Shown here piece by piece: positions 1 through 11,584 of a stretch of DNA of 64,000 nucleotides. The notes beneath the pieces are model-generated. The model was not told where the DNA came from. It saw nothing but the letters and a program-made list of their open reading frames with translations, and ran no database searches. The number at the start of each line of letters is the position of its first letter. Position 1 is the first letter of the stretch. The stretch is taken from assembly GCF_001294205.1 (NCBI RefSeq), contig NZ_LAQT01000032.1, forward strand, positions 1 to 64,000. The letters run 5' to 3'. The position numbers were made by a program, and so were the translations under genes. The stretch is from Amantichitinum ursilacus. Lineage in GTDB: Bacteria > Pseudomonadota > Gammaproteobacteria > Burkholderiales > Chitinibacteraceae.

Positions 1-339
1 CGCGAATGCTTGTTTGTCTTTCCCAAGCACTCACACTCATCGGCTGTATTTTGTTAAAGATCGTTGCCACCAGACACTTGGAACCTGCTAAACTCTTCGT
101 TTTCGCTGTTTCGCTGTGTGTCTGCAGCGGAGAAACCGAACTATACCCACCACCCTGCAGACCGTCAACACCTGCTCTGCAAAAATCTTCTCCCGAATCC
201 TTAAACCCCTGATCCGCCAGCAAATCTTTGTTAAAGATTTTTGAAGGCAATTCTGAATCCGACCAAATCGGTCTCGACCAGACGGTTAAAACATTCGTAT
301 AAAACCTGCTTTAAACGCCATTTAAACGCCATAAAACTG
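1..339. other. Non-coding stretch resembling rRNA-operon spacer or edge sequence
   Basis: No convincing gene. The block around 24-60 (AAGCACTCACACTCATCGGC followed by TTTTGTTAAAGA) resembles, from memory, the spacer sequence common beside 16S, 23S and 5S genes in Neisseriales and other betaproteobacteria. TTTGTTAAAGAT occurs again near 228. No rRNA sequence is inside the window, so an operon lying just left of base 1 is an inference. A 68-codon open frame at 6-212 has no recognisable product and poor coding character. Confidence 0.3.
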
Positions 340-365
340 AAAAGCCGCTCGGGTGAGCGGCTTTT
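340..365. terminator. Intrinsic terminator, possibly bidirectional
   Basis: An 11-bp perfect stem (AAAAGCCGCTC / GAGCGGCTTTT) closes a 4-base loop, with A-rich and T-rich edges on both sides. It lies 35 bases beyond the stop of the minus-strand methyltransferase gene, and so probably ends that transcript as well as any transcript arriving from the left. Confidence 0.8.
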
Positions 366-399
366 GCATATCAATTTGCCTATAAATTAAGCAAATGGA

Positions 400-1881
400 T
401 TAACGATTGGACCCTGCCACCAGCTTGAACTCATAAAAGCGGCAATCCAGTGCACCGTTATATATAGGAAGACGGCGCGACGGCGTCAGGCGGATCAGTT
501 TGGGCAGGCGCAGATCGCCTGTCAGCAGCCAGGCACGCCAGCCGCTGAATTGCTGTTTAAGCACATTGCCCAGCTCCGGATAAAACTCCGCCAGCGCATC
601 CAGTTCTTCCAGACGCACGCCATACGGCGGGTTGGCGATCAGCACGCCTTCGGCTGCGGGCGCTTGTTCGGTATCACGCAGGTCGCCTTGCTGCACGTCC
701 ACCAAATGATCCAGCCCGGCTGCGACCAGATTATGGCGCGCGCTTTCAACCGCAACGGCATCCCGATCACGTCCCGTGATCGGTGCGCTCAATGTTTCAC
801 GCGCAGCGCCACGCGCCTGTTCACGGTAGCCATCCCATTTCTGCGCATCAAAGCCCGACAGACCTTCAAAGCCAAAGCGGCGCAAACGCCCCGGCGCCAG
901 GCCCAATGCAATCTGGGCGGCTTCAATCAGGAAGGTGCCGCTGCCGCACATGGGATCATGCAACGCTTCGTGACCATTCCAGCCCGACAGCAACAACAAA
1001 CCCGCCGCCAGATTTTCGCGCAACGGCGCATCTACGCTTTCCTGGCGATAACCACGTTTGAACAGCGATTCACCCGAGGTATCTATATAGAGCGTCGCCA
1101 GGCGATCGGTCATAAAGATATGGATACGCACATCCGGCGCATGCGTATCCACACTGGGGCGCTCGCCGCAGGCATCGCGGAAGATATCGCACACCGCGTC
1201 TTTTACTTTCAATGCAATAAAATCCAGGCTGCGCAGATTACTGCGTTGCGCCGTCACCGAGACCTTGATGGTGCGTTCCACATTAAACAACGCAGGCCAG
1301 TCGGTACGGGTGCCCAGACGATATAGATCGGCCTCGCTGCGATACGCGCGTTCATCCAGGCGCAACAGAATGCGGCTGGCGATGCGCGAATGCAGGTTGG
1401 CCAGGTACATCAGGTCAATCAGGCCGCGGAAACCCACGCCGCCTTCTTTAACATCGATATCTTGCGCGCCCAGGTTGGCCAGTTCATCGGCCAGCAACTG
1501 TTCCAGCCCGCGCGGGCACGGTGCGTAGTATTGCTGGATGGCGGTCCAATCAAACTGGTTGGGCCGCAATGTATTAGAAGCCGCCACCACGCCACCGCTG
1601 CCCGTGCCCCGGCTTGATACTGCGGCGGGTCGCCGGCCGGTATGCGAAAACCCGTCGCGACTATCCCGGCCGCGACCGCCGCGGTCATCGGCTTTACGCT
1701 CGCCAAACACGCGCGGTGCGCGCTCGGCTTCAGCGTCCGGACGCTTGCCGCCGCTGGCCGCCGCACCCGTCTTGCGGGCGTGGTCGGCTTGCTGTGCGCC
1801 CGGCCGTGCCGGTTTACGCGACGGCGCATCCGCAGTCGGCGCAACGCGTGGTGGCAGTTTCAGGGTTTTCTTTTCAGTCAT
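400..1881 (-). CDS. THUMP-domain class I SAM-dependent rRNA methyltransferase (RlmL-like)
   Basis: Predicted to methylate a guanine N2 in 23S rRNA, by analogy with the N-terminal half of E. coli RlmL. Residues 1 to about 105 are a basic, low-complexity extension rich in Arg, Ala, Gly and Pro. A THUMP region follows (about 115-260), then a Rossmann methyltransferase domain with the DPMCGSGT SAM-binding motif and NPPYG at about 417-421, the catalytic signature of N-methyltransferases. At 493 residues it is longer than usual single-domain relatives because of the extension. A TTG nine bases upstream (1890) is also in frame; ATG at 1881 is preferred. It is the last gene before the terminator at 340-365. 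The exact target base cannot be told from sequence. Confidence 0.85.
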   Translation of the reverse strand: MTEKKTLKLPPRVAPTADAPSRKPARPGAQQADHARKTGAAASGGKRPDAEAERAPRVFGERKADDRGGRGRDSRDGFSHTGRRPAAVSSRGTGSGGVVAASNTLRPNQFDWTAIQQYYAPCPRGLEQLLADELANLGAQDIDVKEGGVGFRGLIDLMYLANLHSRIASRILLRLDERAYRSEADLYRLGTRTDWPALFNVERTIKVSVTAQRSNLRSLDFIALKVKDAVCDIFRDACGERPSVDTHAPDVRIHIFMTDRLATLYIDTSGESLFKRGYRQESVDAPLRENLAAGLLLLSGWNGHEALHDPMCGSGTFLIEAAQIALGLAPGRLRRFGFEGLSGFDAQKWDGYREQARGAARETLSAPITGRDRDAVAVESARHNLVAAGLDHLVDVQQGDLRDTEQAPAAEGVLIANPPYGVRLEELDALAEFYPELGNVLKQQFSGWRAWLLTGDLRLPKLIRLTPSRRLPIYNGALDCRFYEFKLVAGSNR

Positions 1882-1911: not shown

Positions 1912-2256
1912 CTACGGCAGGGTACGTCTAAGGGCGGCAGGCAATTTGCGCCGCACCAGAAAATAAGAATGCTGGATCAGTTCAGCCAGCAAGTCATCCG
2001 GAATGGCGGCGGGCGTATCCAGCGCAATCCAGTAATAACGCCCCAAATACGGCGCGGGCCGCACACCGGGGCGATCGGTTAGTTCCAGAAAACGGTCAGG
2101 CTCGACCTTGATGCAGACCGAGCCACTGTTCAGGCCATAAATGGCAAACATCTTTGCGCCGATGCTGTAGACCTCGTTGGTCTGCCACTTGATATCGGTC
2201 GTGGCCCCCGGTTGCGCCGCGCAAAACGCGCGAAACTGCTCGGCCGTCATCGCCAT
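1912..2256 (-). CDS. MmcQ/YjbR family protein
   Basis: A 114-residue protein of the MmcQ/YjbR (CyaY-like fold) family, a group of small double-wing DNA-binding-like proteins of unclear role. Visible family features are the N-terminal helix, the KMFAIYG strand, and the C-terminal YYWIALDTPAAIPDDLLAEL segment followed by a helix that ends in KLPAALR. The start at 2256 is chosen because AAGGAG lies 8 bases upstream; a longer in-frame reading to 2298 has no ribosome-binding site and lacks family resemblance. It sits between the SMC-like gene and the RNA methyltransferase on the same strand, with about 80 bases before it. Confidence 0.85.
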   Translation of the reverse strand: MAMTAEQFRAFCAAQPGATTDIKWQTNEVYSIGAKMFAIYGLNSGSVCIKVEPDRFLELTDRPGVRPAPYLGRYYWIALDTPAAIPDDLLAELIQHSYFLVRRKLPAALRRTLP

Positions 2257-2335
2257 CCACGGTACTCCTTCCCTACGTTGATGGCTGCAGGATAGCAAGC
2301 TTCAGCGTGGGTATCGTCCGCACGGCCGTCCAGGA

Positions 2336-5143
2336 TCAGACCGCCGCCTTGGCGCGACGCCGCGTTTGCGCAATCGCAGGCGCCCAGATTTCGCCAGCCT
2401 GCTTTTTGCGCGTAGTCAGCGTCAGATCGCTTGGGCCGTAGACGTTGGTGTTGTGCGTCAGCGGCGTGGTAATCAGATATTGCGCCTGGGTGGCTTTCAA
2501 GAAACCGCCCACACGATCAATGTTAAAGATATCCAGATGCGCAAACGGCTCGTCGATAAACACAAAGCCAGACGGGTTGGCGTCGTCCATCATCAGGCTG
2601 ATCAGCATGATCAACGACTTCATCACCTGCTGCCCGCCCGAGGCCTCGCCATCGTTCAGCCCCATCATGCCTTTCTGGTCAAAGTTGAAGCGTACGGTCA
2701 GGCCCGCTTGCGCCAGCACGGTGTCATCGTTTTCCAGTTGCGGCAGATCGGTTTCGACATCAATGCCCGACAATTCGCCCAGCCGCTTCAGATTGCGGCC
2801 ATAGGTACGCACCGTCGCTTTCAGCTTGTTGATATACGCGGCGCGCGCTTCATCGGTCAGTTGCGCGGTGCGTTCGACTTCGTTGCGATGCAGTTGGGTG
2901 TCGCGTTCCAGCGCGTGGTAATCCTCGCCCAGCTTGTCACGACGCAATAGCACGGTCTGATCGGTTTCCCAATCGGCTTGCGCCAGCCGCTCGCGCTCGC
3001 GCTCGATCATATGGCGCGCTTCGCTCAGACCACCATATTTGTCCTTGTAGGCGCGCAAGCTGGCGCTGCTACGCATTTCGGGCGGCATGCCGGCTTTGGC
3101 GTTGCGCAGATCGCGGATGCGGCGGCTTTGCTCATCGCGTTGGCGCGACAACTGGTTCAGCTCGTCATTGACGTGGGCATTAAGGCGGTCACGCCGGTCT
3201 TTCAGTTTCTCGAATTGCACGCGACCGTCTTCACGAATCTTGCGCGCTTCGTCCCAGCTGGCTTGCGCCGCCGCCACCGCCGCGCCGGCTTCTTGGGCGC
3301 GACGTTGTTCTTCGGGCCAACGCTCTGCGACGGCCGCAAATTCGTCCTGGCGCGCGGCCAACTGCACCACCGCCTGCATACCCATCAACGATTGTTGCAG
3401 GGCCGAGGCATCGCGCTCCAGCTCAACCAGCAAGGCCTCGTCTTTCAGCAATTGTTCGTTCAGATCACGCAAGCGACGCGCGGATTCTTGCAGACGCGAA
3501 ACCCGCGCTGCCTCGCCAAACGCATATTCACCGGGCCGAGCCGAGATATCGCGCGCACCGCGGCGTTCTTTATGAAAGCCATCGCGCGTAATCCACTCGC
3601 CATCCAGATGCTGGCCATCGGCCACTGATTTCGCCCGTTGCGTGCGATTAAGCAGGCTCACCAACCATGCGGGCGCATCGGCCTTAAAGTCGACAATCTC
3701 AAGAATCGAATTGCCATTGGCGCGGCCCACCTTCTCACGATCCGGCACGATGAAATGGCGGTATTTAAGCTGCTGCCCCAGTTCAAATGCGCGCTGCCGG
3801 TCTTGCGGCTTGTCCAGCAGAATGATGTGGCGATACGGGGCCAGCAACGCTTCCACCGCGTCCTGCCAGGTGTTGTCGCGCACCTCCACAATTTCGGTCA
3901 GCAATTGATGGCGGATACCCGCTTCGTCCAGCGCCGCGCGCATGCGGTTTACAAAGTCGGGATGCGGCGCCCGGCCCTGGTCCAGCGCAAACTTCATATC
4001 GGCCAGTTGCTGGCGTTCATCCTTTTGCACGCGGATGGTTTGTTTCAGTTGATTGGCTTGCTCACGCTTCAGCGCCAGTTGGTCCGCCAACGCCACGCCA
4101 TCGGCGCCGTTTTCGGCGGCAGCCAGCTGGCGCAGGCGTTCTGCCTCTTTCATGGTTTTTTCGCTGTCGCGCGCGGCATCGCGCGCCGACTGGAACACCG
4201 TATAAGCCGCATCGTTTTCGATCCGCGCCGCTTCTTCATGCGTCACCGCAATGGCTTGCGCCGCTTCGCTGTGGCGATAGTGCGCATCCAGCGCGTCCAG
4301 TTCATCCTGCTTCTGGCGCAATGATTTGCGCGCGCCGCGGAACTGGTTGATATAGCCGCGCAGGCTTTCCCATTGCTCCACGTACTTCAGCGCAGGGATG
4401 GCGTGCTGCTCCAGCGTTTCAATATCACGCTGCAAGCCTTGCCATTCCAGATAGTTGTTGCCGCGCAATTTAAGACGTTCAACGTCCAGGCCCAATTGGC
4501 TAAGCTGCTGTTCCATCTTGCCGAGTTCGCCCTCGGCTTCCTTCAGACGCAATTTGGCTTCGGCGTAATGGTCGAGCACCTGCTTGTCGCCAAACACCTG
4601 GAACACCAGCTCAAGCAGCGCCTTGGGCGAGTATTCGCACAGCTTGTCGGTGTCGCCCTGCTCCAGCGCCAACACTTCGGCAATCGCGGGCGTCAGGCCG
4701 GCTTGTTCCAGCCGACGTTTGTATTCGTTAACGCCCAGCCACTGCACGGTCAGCTCGGTTTGCGCATCCAGCGTGACATCGCCTTCGGCAATTGCGTACT
4801 GGCGCACCCAATCACCGCCCTGCTTTTTAATACGGCAAAACAAGGTGACGACTTCAGAGGTGGCCGGGAAAAACAGATACGGAAACAGCCCACCGCCCTG
4901 GCGACGCGGGTTGGATACCACGCCGCGCAGCCACGCGTTGTTCTCACGGTTATTGCGCACATAGCGTTTGTAATCGCGCCGGCCCGAGCATTTGAGCGCC
5001 AGCAACGTGCGCAGCGCATCCAGCAAGGTGGTTTTGCCGGAGCCATTGGGGCCAACGATGGTGACAATCTGGGCATCCAGCGGCACCTTGATGGCGCGCC
5101 AGAAATCCCAGTGGATCATTTCGAGTTCACGAATCTGGAACAT
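2336..5143 (-). CDS. SMC-like condensin ATPase (MksB/JetC-type)
   Basis: A 935-residue ABC-type ATPase with SMC architecture. The head has Walker A GPNGSGKT at 31-38, the signature SGGQQ at 835-839 and Walker B FVFIDE at 860-865, followed by an H-L-D loop. Long heptad-rich coiled-coil arms (roughly 190-390 and 590-800) flank a hinge-like globular segment (about 395-560, containing DNTWQDAVEALLAPYRHIILL). It is shorter than MukB (about 1,480) and somewhat shorter than typical MksB/JetC proteins. Its start abuts the stop of the MukE-like gene with no spacing, which implies coupled translation. It is predicted to entrap and extrude DNA with the two upstream proteins. RecN and Rad50 are less likely because of the partner genes and the hinge. 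No zinc hook (CxxC) is seen. Confidence 0.8.
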   Translation of the reverse strand: MFQIRELEMIHWDFWRAIKVPLDAQIVTIVGPNGSGKTTLLDALRTLLALKCSGRRDYKRYVRNNRENNAWLRGVVSNPRRQGGGLFPYLFFPATSEVVTLFCRIKKQGGDWVRQYAIAEGDVTLDAQTELTVQWLGVNEYKRRLEQAGLTPAIAEVLALEQGDTDKLCEYSPKALLELVFQVFGDKQVLDHYAEAKLRLKEAEGELGKMEQQLSQLGLDVERLKLRGNNYLEWQGLQRDIETLEQHAIPALKYVEQWESLRGYINQFRGARKSLRQKQDELDALDAHYRHSEAAQAIAVTHEEAARIENDAAYTVFQSARDAARDSEKTMKEAERLRQLAAAENGADGVALADQLALKREQANQLKQTIRVQKDERQQLADMKFALDQGRAPHPDFVNRMRAALDEAGIRHQLLTEIVEVRDNTWQDAVEALLAPYRHIILLDKPQDRQRAFELGQQLKYRHFIVPDREKVGRANGNSILEIVDFKADAPAWLVSLLNRTQRAKSVADGQHLDGEWITRDGFHKERRGARDISARPGEYAFGEAARVSRLQESARRLRDLNEQLLKDEALLVELERDASALQQSLMGMQAVVQLAARQDEFAAVAERWPEEQRRAQEAGAAVAAAQASWDEARKIREDGRVQFEKLKDRRDRLNAHVNDELNQLSRQRDEQSRRIRDLRNAKAGMPPEMRSSASLRAYKDKYGGLSEARHMIERERERLAQADWETDQTVLLRRDKLGEDYHALERDTQLHRNEVERTAQLTDEARAAYINKLKATVRTYGRNLKRLGELSGIDVETDLPQLENDDTVLAQAGLTVRFNFDQKGMMGLNDGEASGGQQVMKSLIMLISLMMDDANPSGFVFIDEPFAHLDIFNIDRVGGFLKATQAQYLITTPLTHNTNVYGPSDLTLTTRKKQAGEIWAPAIAQTRRRAKAAV

Positions 5144-5827
5144 TTACAGGTCTTCTCCAGATGCGGAGGAATCAACAGTGGCAACGTCGAGCGCCAATTG
5201 CGTGCCCGACAGATCAAGTACTTCGGCCATCGCGCCTTCGATAATGCGCGGCGCCAGTCTGGCGTAGTCGATCATCAGATCGAGCATCGGGCCTTCGTGG
5301 ATCATCTTGTTGCGGCGGACCACAAAGCCGAGCTTGGCCAGTTGGCCCAGGTTCATCGAAAAGCGCGATTTGCCGCCCAGCTTTTTGCCAAAGTCGGCGT
5401 AGATGGCGTCTTCCGGCACGCCCAGCGCCACTTCTTCGCCGCGCGCAATGGGCTTCTCCGAGCCAAACAGATCGGACTGGCCGCCGTTCTTGCTGGCGCG
5501 CGCAATCTGGCGCTCGCGCTTGGGCAGAATGATCAGCGCCCACACAATCACCAGCAAAGCGATCGCATCGCGCGGCAGACCCATATTGTTGGACAGCCAG
5601 TTATCGCCTTCGCCAAACACCCAGTCTTCCATCTCGGGTTTAAGGCCGATGGCGATGTGCTCGGCGTACGGGTTCTCCAGCAATTGCATGCCGCAATCGT
5701 CCAGACGCCGGTCGAGCATGTCGCGAAATACTTCGTCGACCAGCGCGCGACGCGCCAGCGGGTCTTTGCGCGGAATAAAACGGTGGGCGAACAGGCGCGC
5801 CAGCAGAATATTTAAAGCTTGATCCAT
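5144..5827 (-). CDS. MukE/MksE/JetB-like condensin accessory subunit
   Basis: A 227-residue acidic protein placed between a kleisin-like and an SMC-like gene, matching the second position of MksFEB and JetABC operons. It lacks membrane segments and has winged-helix character: the FGKKLGGKSRFSMNLGQLAKLGFVVRR segment reads as a helix-turn-helix with a wing. Family assignment rests mostly on context and size. The ATG at 5827 lies 13 bases after the upstream stop; an in-frame extension to 5893 overlaps the upstream gene and is not favoured. It would bridge the kleisin and the ATPase heads. The Glu/Asp-rich C-terminus (about 210-227) is probably disordered. Confidence 0.65.
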   Translation of the reverse strand: MDQALNILLARLFAHRFIPRKDPLARRALVDEVFRDMLDRRLDDCGMQLLENPYAEHIAIGLKPEMEDWVFGEGDNWLSNNMGLPRDAIALLVIVWALIILPKRERQIARASKNGGQSDLFGSEKPIARGEEVALGVPEDAIYADFGKKLGGKSRFSMNLGQLAKLGFVVRRNKMIHEGPMLDLMIDYARLAPRIIEGAMAEVLDLSGTQLALDVATVDSSASGEDL

Positions 5828-5840
5828 AACGGGTACCTGG

Positions 5841-7097
5841 TCAGAGCGGCTTAAGCCGGCCACGCGTGAGCGCAGCCACTTCGGGGTGATCAATCAGGTC
5901 GACAACATCATCGGTCTCAAACGCCAGCGGCAGCTTGACCAGGTCGGCGACGATGCTTTGCTCCAGCGCGGCCTCGCGGTCACCCAGCAGCGACAACAGC
6001 GACAGACGATAGGCGGTTTCGGCATAGGTATCGGCCAGCACGGCGTCGGTGAGCGGCGTTTCGAGCTTGATGTTTTGCAGCAGCTCAAACAGTTCTTCGG
6101 CATGCCACAGGCGCTCGGCTTCAGCGGCGCTGACATTGGGCGATTCTTCCGAAGCGGGCAGCTCGCTGACGATCTCCTCAACGCGTTCGCGCTCAAGGAT
6201 TTCAAATTCGGTTACGTCCAGCAGCAAATCCGAAACCGCAAAGGCGGGCTCGGGATGAAAACTGAGTAGATCGCGGCCCAGATCGGCCAGTTGTTCTTGC
6301 GAGCGGCCGCGCAGCCAGTCCGACACATTGGTCGAGGTCAGCCCGGACTGGCCCAGATGCACGCGTTGCGCCGCCAGTTCGGCCAGGCGGCGCTGGAATA
6401 CGCCGGTCATATTAAGCATGCGGCCTTGCGACAGCGCGATGGCTTGTGCAATTTGCTGCACGCGGCGCTCGCCCGATTCGTCTTCGAGCACGGCGCGGAC
6501 CACTTCGGTGCCCTTTTCCACCCACTTCCACACGCTATCTAGCTTGGCGCGCGCGCTGCGGATCTGATGTTCGGATTGCGATTCAAGCGCTTGCTCAAAA
6601 TCGCCATGCAATTCGGTCAGCCGCGCCTGCAAATGCTGCAGCGATTCGGTCGAGATATTGCCCACAGCCTGGCCCGCTGCCACTTGCGCGGTCAGATAGC
6701 CGAGTTCGGCATCGCCATCGGCAAATTGCGTCAGCGTGGCCACCGCTGCCAAGGCCACGCGGCCCGGTTCGGACAGGCCGTACAACCCTTCGTCGCTATC
6801 CCACACCAGCAAGCCGTTATCGCGCAGCCGCTTTAACACGGTGTCGCGCTTGATGGCATTGATATAACTGAAATGGCTTTCCAGCTCTTGCGGGCTCCAG
6901 CGTGGCGCTTCGGCGCGCGAGCCAATCTCACGCAGGATCAGCAGCCGCACCATGACTTCGTCTTCGCCACCGCGAAACAGCGTGATCAACGCATCCAGAT
7001 ACGGACGCGCACGCAGCAGCCCGGCCAGCGGTCCGAGATCAGCCGGGTCGACGCCGGGCTGAAAAAAATCAGCAAAGGGGGAATCTGGATTCAACAT
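5841..7097 (-). CDS. Kleisin-like condensin subunit (MksF/JetA-type)
   Basis: A 418-residue soluble protein. Residues about 45-125 form a winged-helix domain (EDEVMVRLLILREIG through DEGLYGLSEPGRVAL), as in MukF-family kleisins. A helical middle (about 150-300) follows, then a C-terminal helical or winged part (about 330-418) with an acidic linker, ERVEEIVSELPASEESPN. This arrangement fits MksF or JetA, which are of similar length. It is the first gene of the three-gene condensin-like set and starts 33 bases after the glycosyltransferase stop, so it is probably co-transcribed with obg. The assignment is from fold features and gene order, not clear sequence identity. Confidence 0.65.
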   Translation of the reverse strand: MLNPDSPFADFFQPGVDPADLGPLAGLLRARPYLDALITLFRGGEDEVMVRLLILREIGSRAEAPRWSPQELESHFSYINAIKRDTVLKRLRDNGLLVWDSDEGLYGLSEPGRVALAAVATLTQFADGDAELGYLTAQVAAGQAVGNISTESLQHLQARLTELHGDFEQALESQSEHQIRSARAKLDSVWKWVEKGTEVVRAVLEDESGERRVQQIAQAIALSQGRMLNMTGVFQRRLAELAAQRVHLGQSGLTSTNVSDWLRGRSQEQLADLGRDLLSFHPEPAFAVSDLLLDVTEFEILERERVEEIVSELPASEESPNVSAAEAERLWHAEELFELLQNIKLETPLTDAVLADTYAETAYRLSLLSLLGDREAALEQSIVADLVKLPLAFETDDVVDLIDHPEVAALTRGRLKPL

Positions 7098-7130: not shown

Positions 7131-9396
<2,266 letters not shown>

Positions 9397-11507: not shown

Positions 11508-11584
11508 CGGGGTGTAGCTTAGCCTGGTAGAGCGCTACGTTCGGGACGTAGAGGCCGGAGGTTCGAATCCTCTCACCCCGACCA
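11508..11584 (+). tRNA. tRNA-Pro (anticodon CGG)
   Basis: A 77-base cloverleaf. The acceptor arms CGGGGTG and CACCCCG pair fully. The anticodon stem is CTACG/CGTAG with loop TTCGGGA, putting anticodon CGG at 11542-11544. The T arm is GGAGG-TTCGAAT-CCTCT (with minor mispairing), and the 3' CCA is encoded. It reads CCG proline codons, which are frequent in this GC-rich genome. Confidence 0.97.

What the first reader, a model, noticed from the sequence alone, without database searches (positions are those of the whole stretch)
2336..7097. Condensin-like three-gene system without a visible JetD nuclease
A kleisin-like, MukE-like and SMC-like gene in MksF-E-B/JetA-B-C order, with zero to 13 bases between them. 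The SMC-like protein is only 935 residues. Flanking genes are a GT14 protein and a YjbR protein; no topoisomerase-VI-like JetD nuclease is there. It could be a plasmid-unrelated chromosome organiser (MksBEF-like) or a defence variant lacking or using another effector.
Basis: partly seen in the sequence, partly recalled or inferred. Interest (0 to 1): 0.65.

Follow-up and report, generated by a model that had tools for sequence, protein, structure and literature searches.

The report
Wadjet-derived condensin that lost its nuclease
This bacterium carries a conserved three-part DNA-looping machine (MksF-E-B) that descends from a four-part anti-plasmid defence system; its closest relatives still encode the DNA-cutting fourth part right after it, while this genome and many others have lost that part and kept the rest under strong selection, most likely as a chromosome organiser.

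Summary
In detail: mksF-mksE-mksB lie at 7097-2336 (-), with gaps of 13 and 0 bp. Predicted folds are kleisin (best hit MukF) and KITE (best hit JetB); MksB has intact SMC ATPase motifs. Standard libraries do not name MksF or MksE. The operon is conserved in Neisseriales and scattered Burkholderiales and gammaproteobacteria, beside obg in 38 of 61 loci. This genome also has a canonical Smc and no JetD anywhere.

New: 11 of 63 genomes with this operon carry a fourth gene directly after mksB, a divergent JetD/MksG nuclease with Toprim E, DxD and EQE motifs. The window's nearest relatives, Silvimonas amylolytica and S. terrae, have mksB-jetD-yjbR; the window has mksB-yjbR. JetD and MksB trees are compatible, favouring an ancestral four-gene system with repeated losses (18 under a loss-only count). 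Where JetD persists in Neisseriales it evolves fast, and in Pseudogulbenkiania its metal-binding Glu is Gln. The other three genes stay under strong purifying selection.

Best reading: an MksBEF-type condensin derived from a divergent Wadjet by loss of the nuclease. That it organises the chromosome is inferred, not shown. P. aeruginosa MksBEF could not be compared directly.

The parts
5841..7097 (-). mksF (jetA-like), kleisin, 418 aa
   Evidence: ORF; AF2 model pLDDT 77, best Foldseek hit MukF 9gm7_C E 1.4e-4, then other MukF chains; conserved in related loci
5144..5827 (-). mksE (jetB-like), KITE protein, 227 aa
   Evidence: AF2 model pLDDT 73; Foldseek hits JetB 8as8_C 4.6e-5 and 8dk1_E/F 7.5e-5, then MAGE-G1/NSE1, Nse1-Nse3-Nse4 and ScpAB entries
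2336..5143 (-). mksB (jetC-like), SMC ATPase with a conserved hinge-like middle (~400-545), 935 aa
   Evidence: SMC_N PF02463 5.5e-16; profile hits JetC 8dk2_C 6e-8; hhalign to JetC of Wadjets E 1.7e-17 over the hinge region
5027..5053 (-). Walker A of MksB, residues 31-39 GPNGSGKTT
   Evidence: invariant but for P32 in 22 relatives
2627..2641 (-). ABC signature of MksB, residues 835-839 SGGQQ
   Evidence: invariant in 22 relatives
2546..2563 (-). Walker B of MksB, residues 861-866 VFIDEP
   Evidence: invariant in 22 relatives
2257..2335 (.). empty jetD slot: 79 bp between the mksB stop and the yjbR ATG; Silvimonas relatives hold a jetD of 405-408 codons here
   Evidence: no remnant found
1912..2256 (-). 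yjbR-like gene; marks the downstream border of the jetD slot
   Evidence: PF04237; orthologous gene follows jetD in L002 and L025 and follows mksB directly in Andreprevotia
7131..8057 (-). GT14 family glycosyltransferase, upstream neighbour, not part of the machine
   Evidence: PF02485
8017..9255 (-). obg GTPase, start of the co-directional gene run that holds mksFEB
   Evidence: translation; obg within two genes of mksF in 38 of 61 loci
340..365 (-). terminator-like hairpin that closes the obg-GT14-mksFEB-yjbR-methyltransferase run
   Evidence: consensus scan only

Best explanation
The three genes encode an SMC complex: an MksB dimer with ATPase heads, a kleisin (MksF) that bridges the heads, and a KITE protein (MksE) bound to the kleisin. 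It descends from a four-gene Wadjet-like (JetABCD) system with a Toprim nuclease (JetD/MksG) after mksB. In the window's lineage that gene was lost from between mksB and yjbR, and the other three were kept. With no nuclease, the complex most likely uses ATP-driven DNA loop extrusion to organise or segregate the chromosome beside the cell's canonical Smc. Shown by computation: the folds, the intact ATPase motifs, the JetD in the orthologous slot of sister species, its absence here, the compatible JetD and MksB trees, and purifying selection on the core. Inferred: loop extrusion, a chromosomal role, and loss rather than repeated gain (supported by congruence, not proven).
For: Kleisin, KITE and SMC identities. 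A fourth gene of about 400 aa directly after mksB in 11 of 63 genomes and nowhere else in them. It matches JetD: PADLOC JetD1 7.4e-14; Pfam DUF2399 above cut-off in three of four members, JetD_C and TOP6A-Spo11 Toprim above cut-off in one; hhalign to Wadjet JetD 5.1e-6. Its E, D.D and EQE motifs correspond to MksG E236, D279, E349/E351 (PMC10123090). The window is sister to S. amylolytica + S. terrae, both with JetD. Slot order mksB-jetD-yjbR there, mksB-yjbR here. JetD data do not reject the MksB tree (AU p 0.11) nor the reverse (0.21); three misplacements are rejected by both. dN/dS of F/E/B window vs Silvimonas 0.09-0.14, pairs of JetD-less congeners 0.02-0.10. Housekeeping location beside obg; canonical Smc elsewhere in the genome. 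No relative in viral contigs or phages, only two partial ones on large Variovorax replicons.
Against: No experiment. No JetD remnant was found in any JetD-less locus, so loss rests on trees and synteny. The loss-only count is high (18 on the whole tree, 14 in the Neisseriales clade), while the fewest changes of either kind is 7, so some transfers are possible. Structure models are only moderate in confidence (pTM 0.39 and 0.57). Sequence-level profile comparison of MksF and MksE with Muk or Wadjet partners is not significant. Direct comparison with P. aeruginosa MksBEF was not possible.
Confidence: 0.7

Rival explanations
1. Still a defence system: MksFEB recognises small circular DNA as Wadjet does and works with a nuclease encoded elsewhere or by merely compacting plasmids.
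For: Ancestry from a JetD-bearing operon; Wadjet JetABC are DNA-shape sensors (PMC10586767).
Against: No JetD of either kind in the genome; no other gene conserved after mksB across JetD-less loci; location beside obg, not a defence island; present in every sampled family member.
Confidence: 0.15
2. JetD was gained several times: the three-gene condensin is ancestral and JetD joined it in some lineages.
For: JetD is rare and patchy; fewest changes 7; no JetD remnants.
Against: All gains would have to land directly after mksB and come from one JetD family; JetD and MksB trees agree on their well-supported splits and alternative placements are rejected; the four-gene form spans Neisseriales, other Burkholderiales and a gammaproteobacterium of another order.
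Confidence: 0.2
3. A decaying leftover: with the nuclease gone the core has no function.
For: JetD loss itself.
Against: dN/dS 0.02-0.14 in JetD-less lineages, intact ATPase motifs, intact frames in nearly all loci.
Confidence: 0.03
4. A standard Wadjet system with a distant jetD gene.
For: Some relatives (G032, G077, G056, G046) do carry a complete Wadjet elsewhere.
Against: Those have their own JetC of 1120-1164 aa and partners next to JetD; the window's genome has no JetD_C hit at E up to 1.
Confidence: 0.02

Closest known systems
Wadjet / JetABCD / MksBEFG (anti-plasmid SMC system)
   Same: Gene order kleisin-KITE-SMC-(nuclease); MksE folds like JetB; the nuclease of relatives matches JetD/MksG with the same active-site residues
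   Different: Window lacks the nuclease; MksB is 935 aa against 1120-1164 aa for Wadjet JetC in genomes that carry both; MksF and MksE are not recognised by Pfam or PADLOC JetA/JetB models (weak hits of a few relatives at 0.002-0.009 only)
MksBEF of Pseudomonas aeruginosa (chromosome condensin without MksG)
   Same: Three genes, no nuclease, co-exists with a canonical Smc; [quoted passage not shown]
   Different: No member of this MksE family in 198 Pseudomonadaceae genomes (one 33-residue match at E 0.007, taken as chance), so the sequence subfamily appears different; whether P. aeruginosa is in that sample is unknown
MukBEF of Escherichia coli
   Same: Kleisin fold (MukF), KITE, SMC; gene order F-E-B
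   Different: MukB is 1486 aa; no significant profile match except the ATPase end of MukB; here a canonical Smc is also present

Membership tests
Wadjet (JetABCD) | JetA kleisin, JetB KITE and JetC SMC encoded in that order | tested here: met
   order and folds; by fold, not by the curated JetA/JetB models
Wadjet (JetABCD) | JetD Toprim nuclease in the operon or genome | tested here: not met
   absent in this genome; present in 11 of 63 genomes with the same operon
Wadjet (JetABCD) | match to known type I-III JetA/JetB/JetC models | tested here: not met
   MksF and MksE unnamed; MksB hits JetC only partially
Wadjet (JetABCD) | restriction of small circular plasmids | not testable with these tools
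   needs a plasmid assay
MksBEF condensin | kleisin-KITE-SMC operon distinct from Smc-ScpAB, without the nuclease | tested here: met
MksBEF condensin | sequence relationship to P. aeruginosa MksB/E/F | tested here: inconclusive
   no MksE relative in 198 Pseudomonadaceae; P. aeruginosa sequence not at hand
MksBEF condensin | role in chromosome organisation | not testable with these tools
   needs mutant and chromosome-contact data
MukBEF | long MukB (about 1486 aa) replacing canonical Smc | tested here: not met
   935 aa, canonical Smc of 1196 aa present
JetD/MksG (fourth gene in relatives) | Toprim metal-binding Glu and Asp (MksG E236, D279) and C-terminal Glu pair (E349/E351) | tested here: met
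   conserved in all but Pseudogulbenkiania (first Glu is Gln in both species; in P. subflava also one of the C-terminal pair is Asp); MksG residues from PMC10123090; equivalence by sequence motif, not by structure

The most novel reading that the evidence does not exclude
Neisseriales show the conversion of an anti-plasmid Wadjet into a chromosomal condensin while it happens: one undescribed JetABCD family in which the nuclease is first released from constraint (fast evolution, active-site change in Pseudogulbenkiania) and then deleted many times independently, while the DNA motor is kept under strong selection.
Probability: 0.5. Interest if true: 0.78.

Novelty: new variant of a known kind. 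Interest (0 to 1): 0.62.

Why it matters
A review proposed that MksBEF condensins arose from Wadjet defence systems by losing JetD (PMC10586767); I found no paper in the held library that shows a series of intermediate states. Here closely related species differ by just that gene in the same slot, which makes the proposal directly testable: compare plasmid restriction and chromosome folding between Silvimonas (with JetD) and the window's species (without). It also adds a JetABCD family that current defence-finding models miss except for JetD, so such systems may be undercounted.

Tried and rejected
Sequence-only identification of MksF and MksE: no Pfam, NCBIfam or convincing PDB match and hhalign against single E. 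coli Muk proteins not significant; settled by predicted folds instead. PADLOC JukB hit of MksF members (up to 1.8e-5) covers only residues 119-203 in the window's protein (E 0.0058) and was not taken as homology. A 216-aa gene between mksF and mksE in some relatives looked like a possible fourth subunit, but it is absent from this genome and from most other genomes searched. An acetyltransferase-like gene between mksE and mksB in three relatives is not conserved. Search for JetD remnants downstream of mksB in JetD-less loci gave nothing better than E 0.076. Pseudomonadaceae search with MksB returned only partial matches in longer ORFs, so no P. aeruginosa comparison. Profile search of the fourth gene in the PDB gave only insignificant topoisomerase VI and Spo11 matches.

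Full report
1. The observation. Three co-directional genes lie on the - strand: mksF 7097-5841 (418 aa), mksE 5827-5144 (227 aa), mksB 5143-2336 (935 aa), with gaps of 13 and 0 bp. The window is the first 64 kb of contig C32 of a 4.93-Mb genome that is 99.75% complete. Flanks are a GT14 protein and obg upstream and a yjbR-like gene downstream. All are in one orientation, and a terminator-like hairpin lies at 365-340 after the methyltransferase gene that follows yjbR (a consensus match only).

2. What the proteins are. MksB matches SMC_N (5.5e-16), and its profile matches a JetC structure best in the PDB (6e-8). Walker A, ABC signature, Walker B and H-loop positions are essentially invariant in 22 relatives. 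Its middle part aligns with the hinge region of Wadjet JetC proteins (hhalign E 1.7e-17). MksF and MksE match nothing in Pfam or NCBIfam. An AlphaFold2 model of MksE (pLDDT 73) has as best PDB matches JetB of E. coli and P. aeruginosa PA14 Wadjet (4.6e-5, 7.5e-5), then a MAGE-G1/NSE1 complex, an Nse1-Nse3-Nse4 complex and the ScpAB core complex. A model of MksF (pLDDT 77) has MukF as best match (1.4e-4) and further MukBEF or MukE-MukF chains in most of the top eleven places. So kleisin, KITE and SMC are supported by fold; overall superposition scores are modest.

3. Distribution. 43 loci in named genomes encode close relatives, mostly Chitinibacteraceae and Chromobacteriaceae. 23 of 150 genomes sampled from the order carry MksB, among them every listed member of the window's family. 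Two further relatives lie in other orders of the class. MksB length is 927-946 aa throughout. obg is within two genes of mksF in 38 of 61 loci. No relative of MksE was found in viral contigs or phages; two large Variovorax replicons hold partial MksB relatives. The genome has one canonical Smc (1196 aa).

4. The missing nuclease. No JetD_C domain was found in the genome. Neighbourhood clustering showed a conserved gene of 388-420 aa directly after mksB in some relatives. Its profile hits the JetD of a complete Wadjet in relative G046 (1.8e-10). Single members match PADLOC JetD1 (7.4e-14), and Pfam DUF2399, JetD_C and TOP6A-Spo11 Toprim. The C. glutamicum MksG residues E236 and D279 (needed for cleavage) and the proposed E349/E351 (PMC10123090) correspond by motif to its VEN, CDxDP and EQE. 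These are kept except in the two Pseudogulbenkiania species, where the first Glu is Gln; S. terrae has lost a TKA motif. The equivalence is by sequence motif, not by structure. A whole-genome search found the gene in 11 of 63 genomes with the operon, in each case adjacent to mksB (one split between contigs), and not in the window's genome.

5. Loss in the window's lineage. In the tree of concatenated MksF, MksE and MksB the window is sister to S. amylolytica and S. terrae (SH-aLRT 99), both of which have JetD. There the order is mksB-jetD-yjbR, with the jetD stop overlapping the yjbR start; in the window yjbR begins 79 bp after the mksB stop. No remnant is left there or in other JetD-less loci. 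Trees of JetD and MksB agree on their well-supported splits. AU tests do not reject either tree on the other's data (p 0.11 and 0.21) but reject three trees with displaced groups. This favours common descent of the four genes. A loss-only reading needs 18 losses on the tree, 14 of them among the 49 rows of the Neisseriales clade; the fewest changes of either kind is 7, so occasional transfer is not excluded.

6. Selection. Between the window and the two Silvimonas species dN/dS is 0.09-0.14 for the three genes; in pairs of JetD-less congeners it is 0.02-0.10. dS is near or above 1 in several pairs, so values are rough. Between the two Silvimonas species dN is 0.246 for JetD and 0.030 for MksB. 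In the other Burkholderiales and the gammaproteobacterium, JetD identity is about equal to MksB identity (for example 54% and 52%). The nuclease thus seems less constrained in the lineage where it is often lost.

7. Two systems in one genome. G032, G077, G056 and G046 also carry Wadjets elsewhere, with a JetC of 1120-1164 aa and JetD in one operon; the one of G046 was checked protein by protein. The obg-linked MksFEB is a separate family.

8. How it probably works. By analogy with MukBEF, Wadjet and P. aeruginosa MksBEF (established knowledge; PMC10586767, PMC7485682), the complex should bind DNA with its ATPase heads, kleisin and KITE, and extrude loops. Wadjet uses this to find small circles and lets JetD cut them; without JetD the same motor can only shape DNA. 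The housekeeping location, presence throughout the family and purifying selection fit a chromosomal role. This step is inferred.

9. Status. It works like a condensin of the MksBEF kind and descends from a Wadjet-like system, but it is not a Wadjet now, since the nuclease was tested for and is absent. I rate it a new variant of a known kind.

Noticed in passing
L004, L005, L006, L008, L012-L015, L024, L025, between mksF and mksE: A conserved 216-aa protein of unknown family (begins MGLLDELKKQAE) is inserted in the operon in these relatives; absent from the window's genome.
   Followed up: partly
L004, L011, L019, between mksE and mksB: An acetyltransferase-like gene of about 180 aa (named by eye, not by a family search) interrupts the operon in three relatives.
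   Followed up: no
L107, L108, L109, L110: JetABCD Wadjet operons in relatives that also carry the MksFEB of this finding.
   Followed up: partly
L039 and L041, gene after mksB: Pseudogulbenkiania JetD has Gln in place of the Toprim metal-binding Glu, though the gene is intact: possibly a nuclease-dead subunit.
   Followed up: partly
window 1-400 and the ends of many related contigs: The window begins at a contig end, and many related contigs also end a few kb downstream of mksB, which suggests a repeat such as an rRNA operon there; no rRNA is inside the window.
   Followed up: partly
NZ_LR594690.1 543090-544571; NZ_LR594663.1 180829-182217: Partial MksB relatives on large Variovorax replicons, each covering about half of the protein.
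   Followed up: no
window 11508-11584: tRNA-Pro(CGG), the only RNA gene found in the window.
   Followed up: yes
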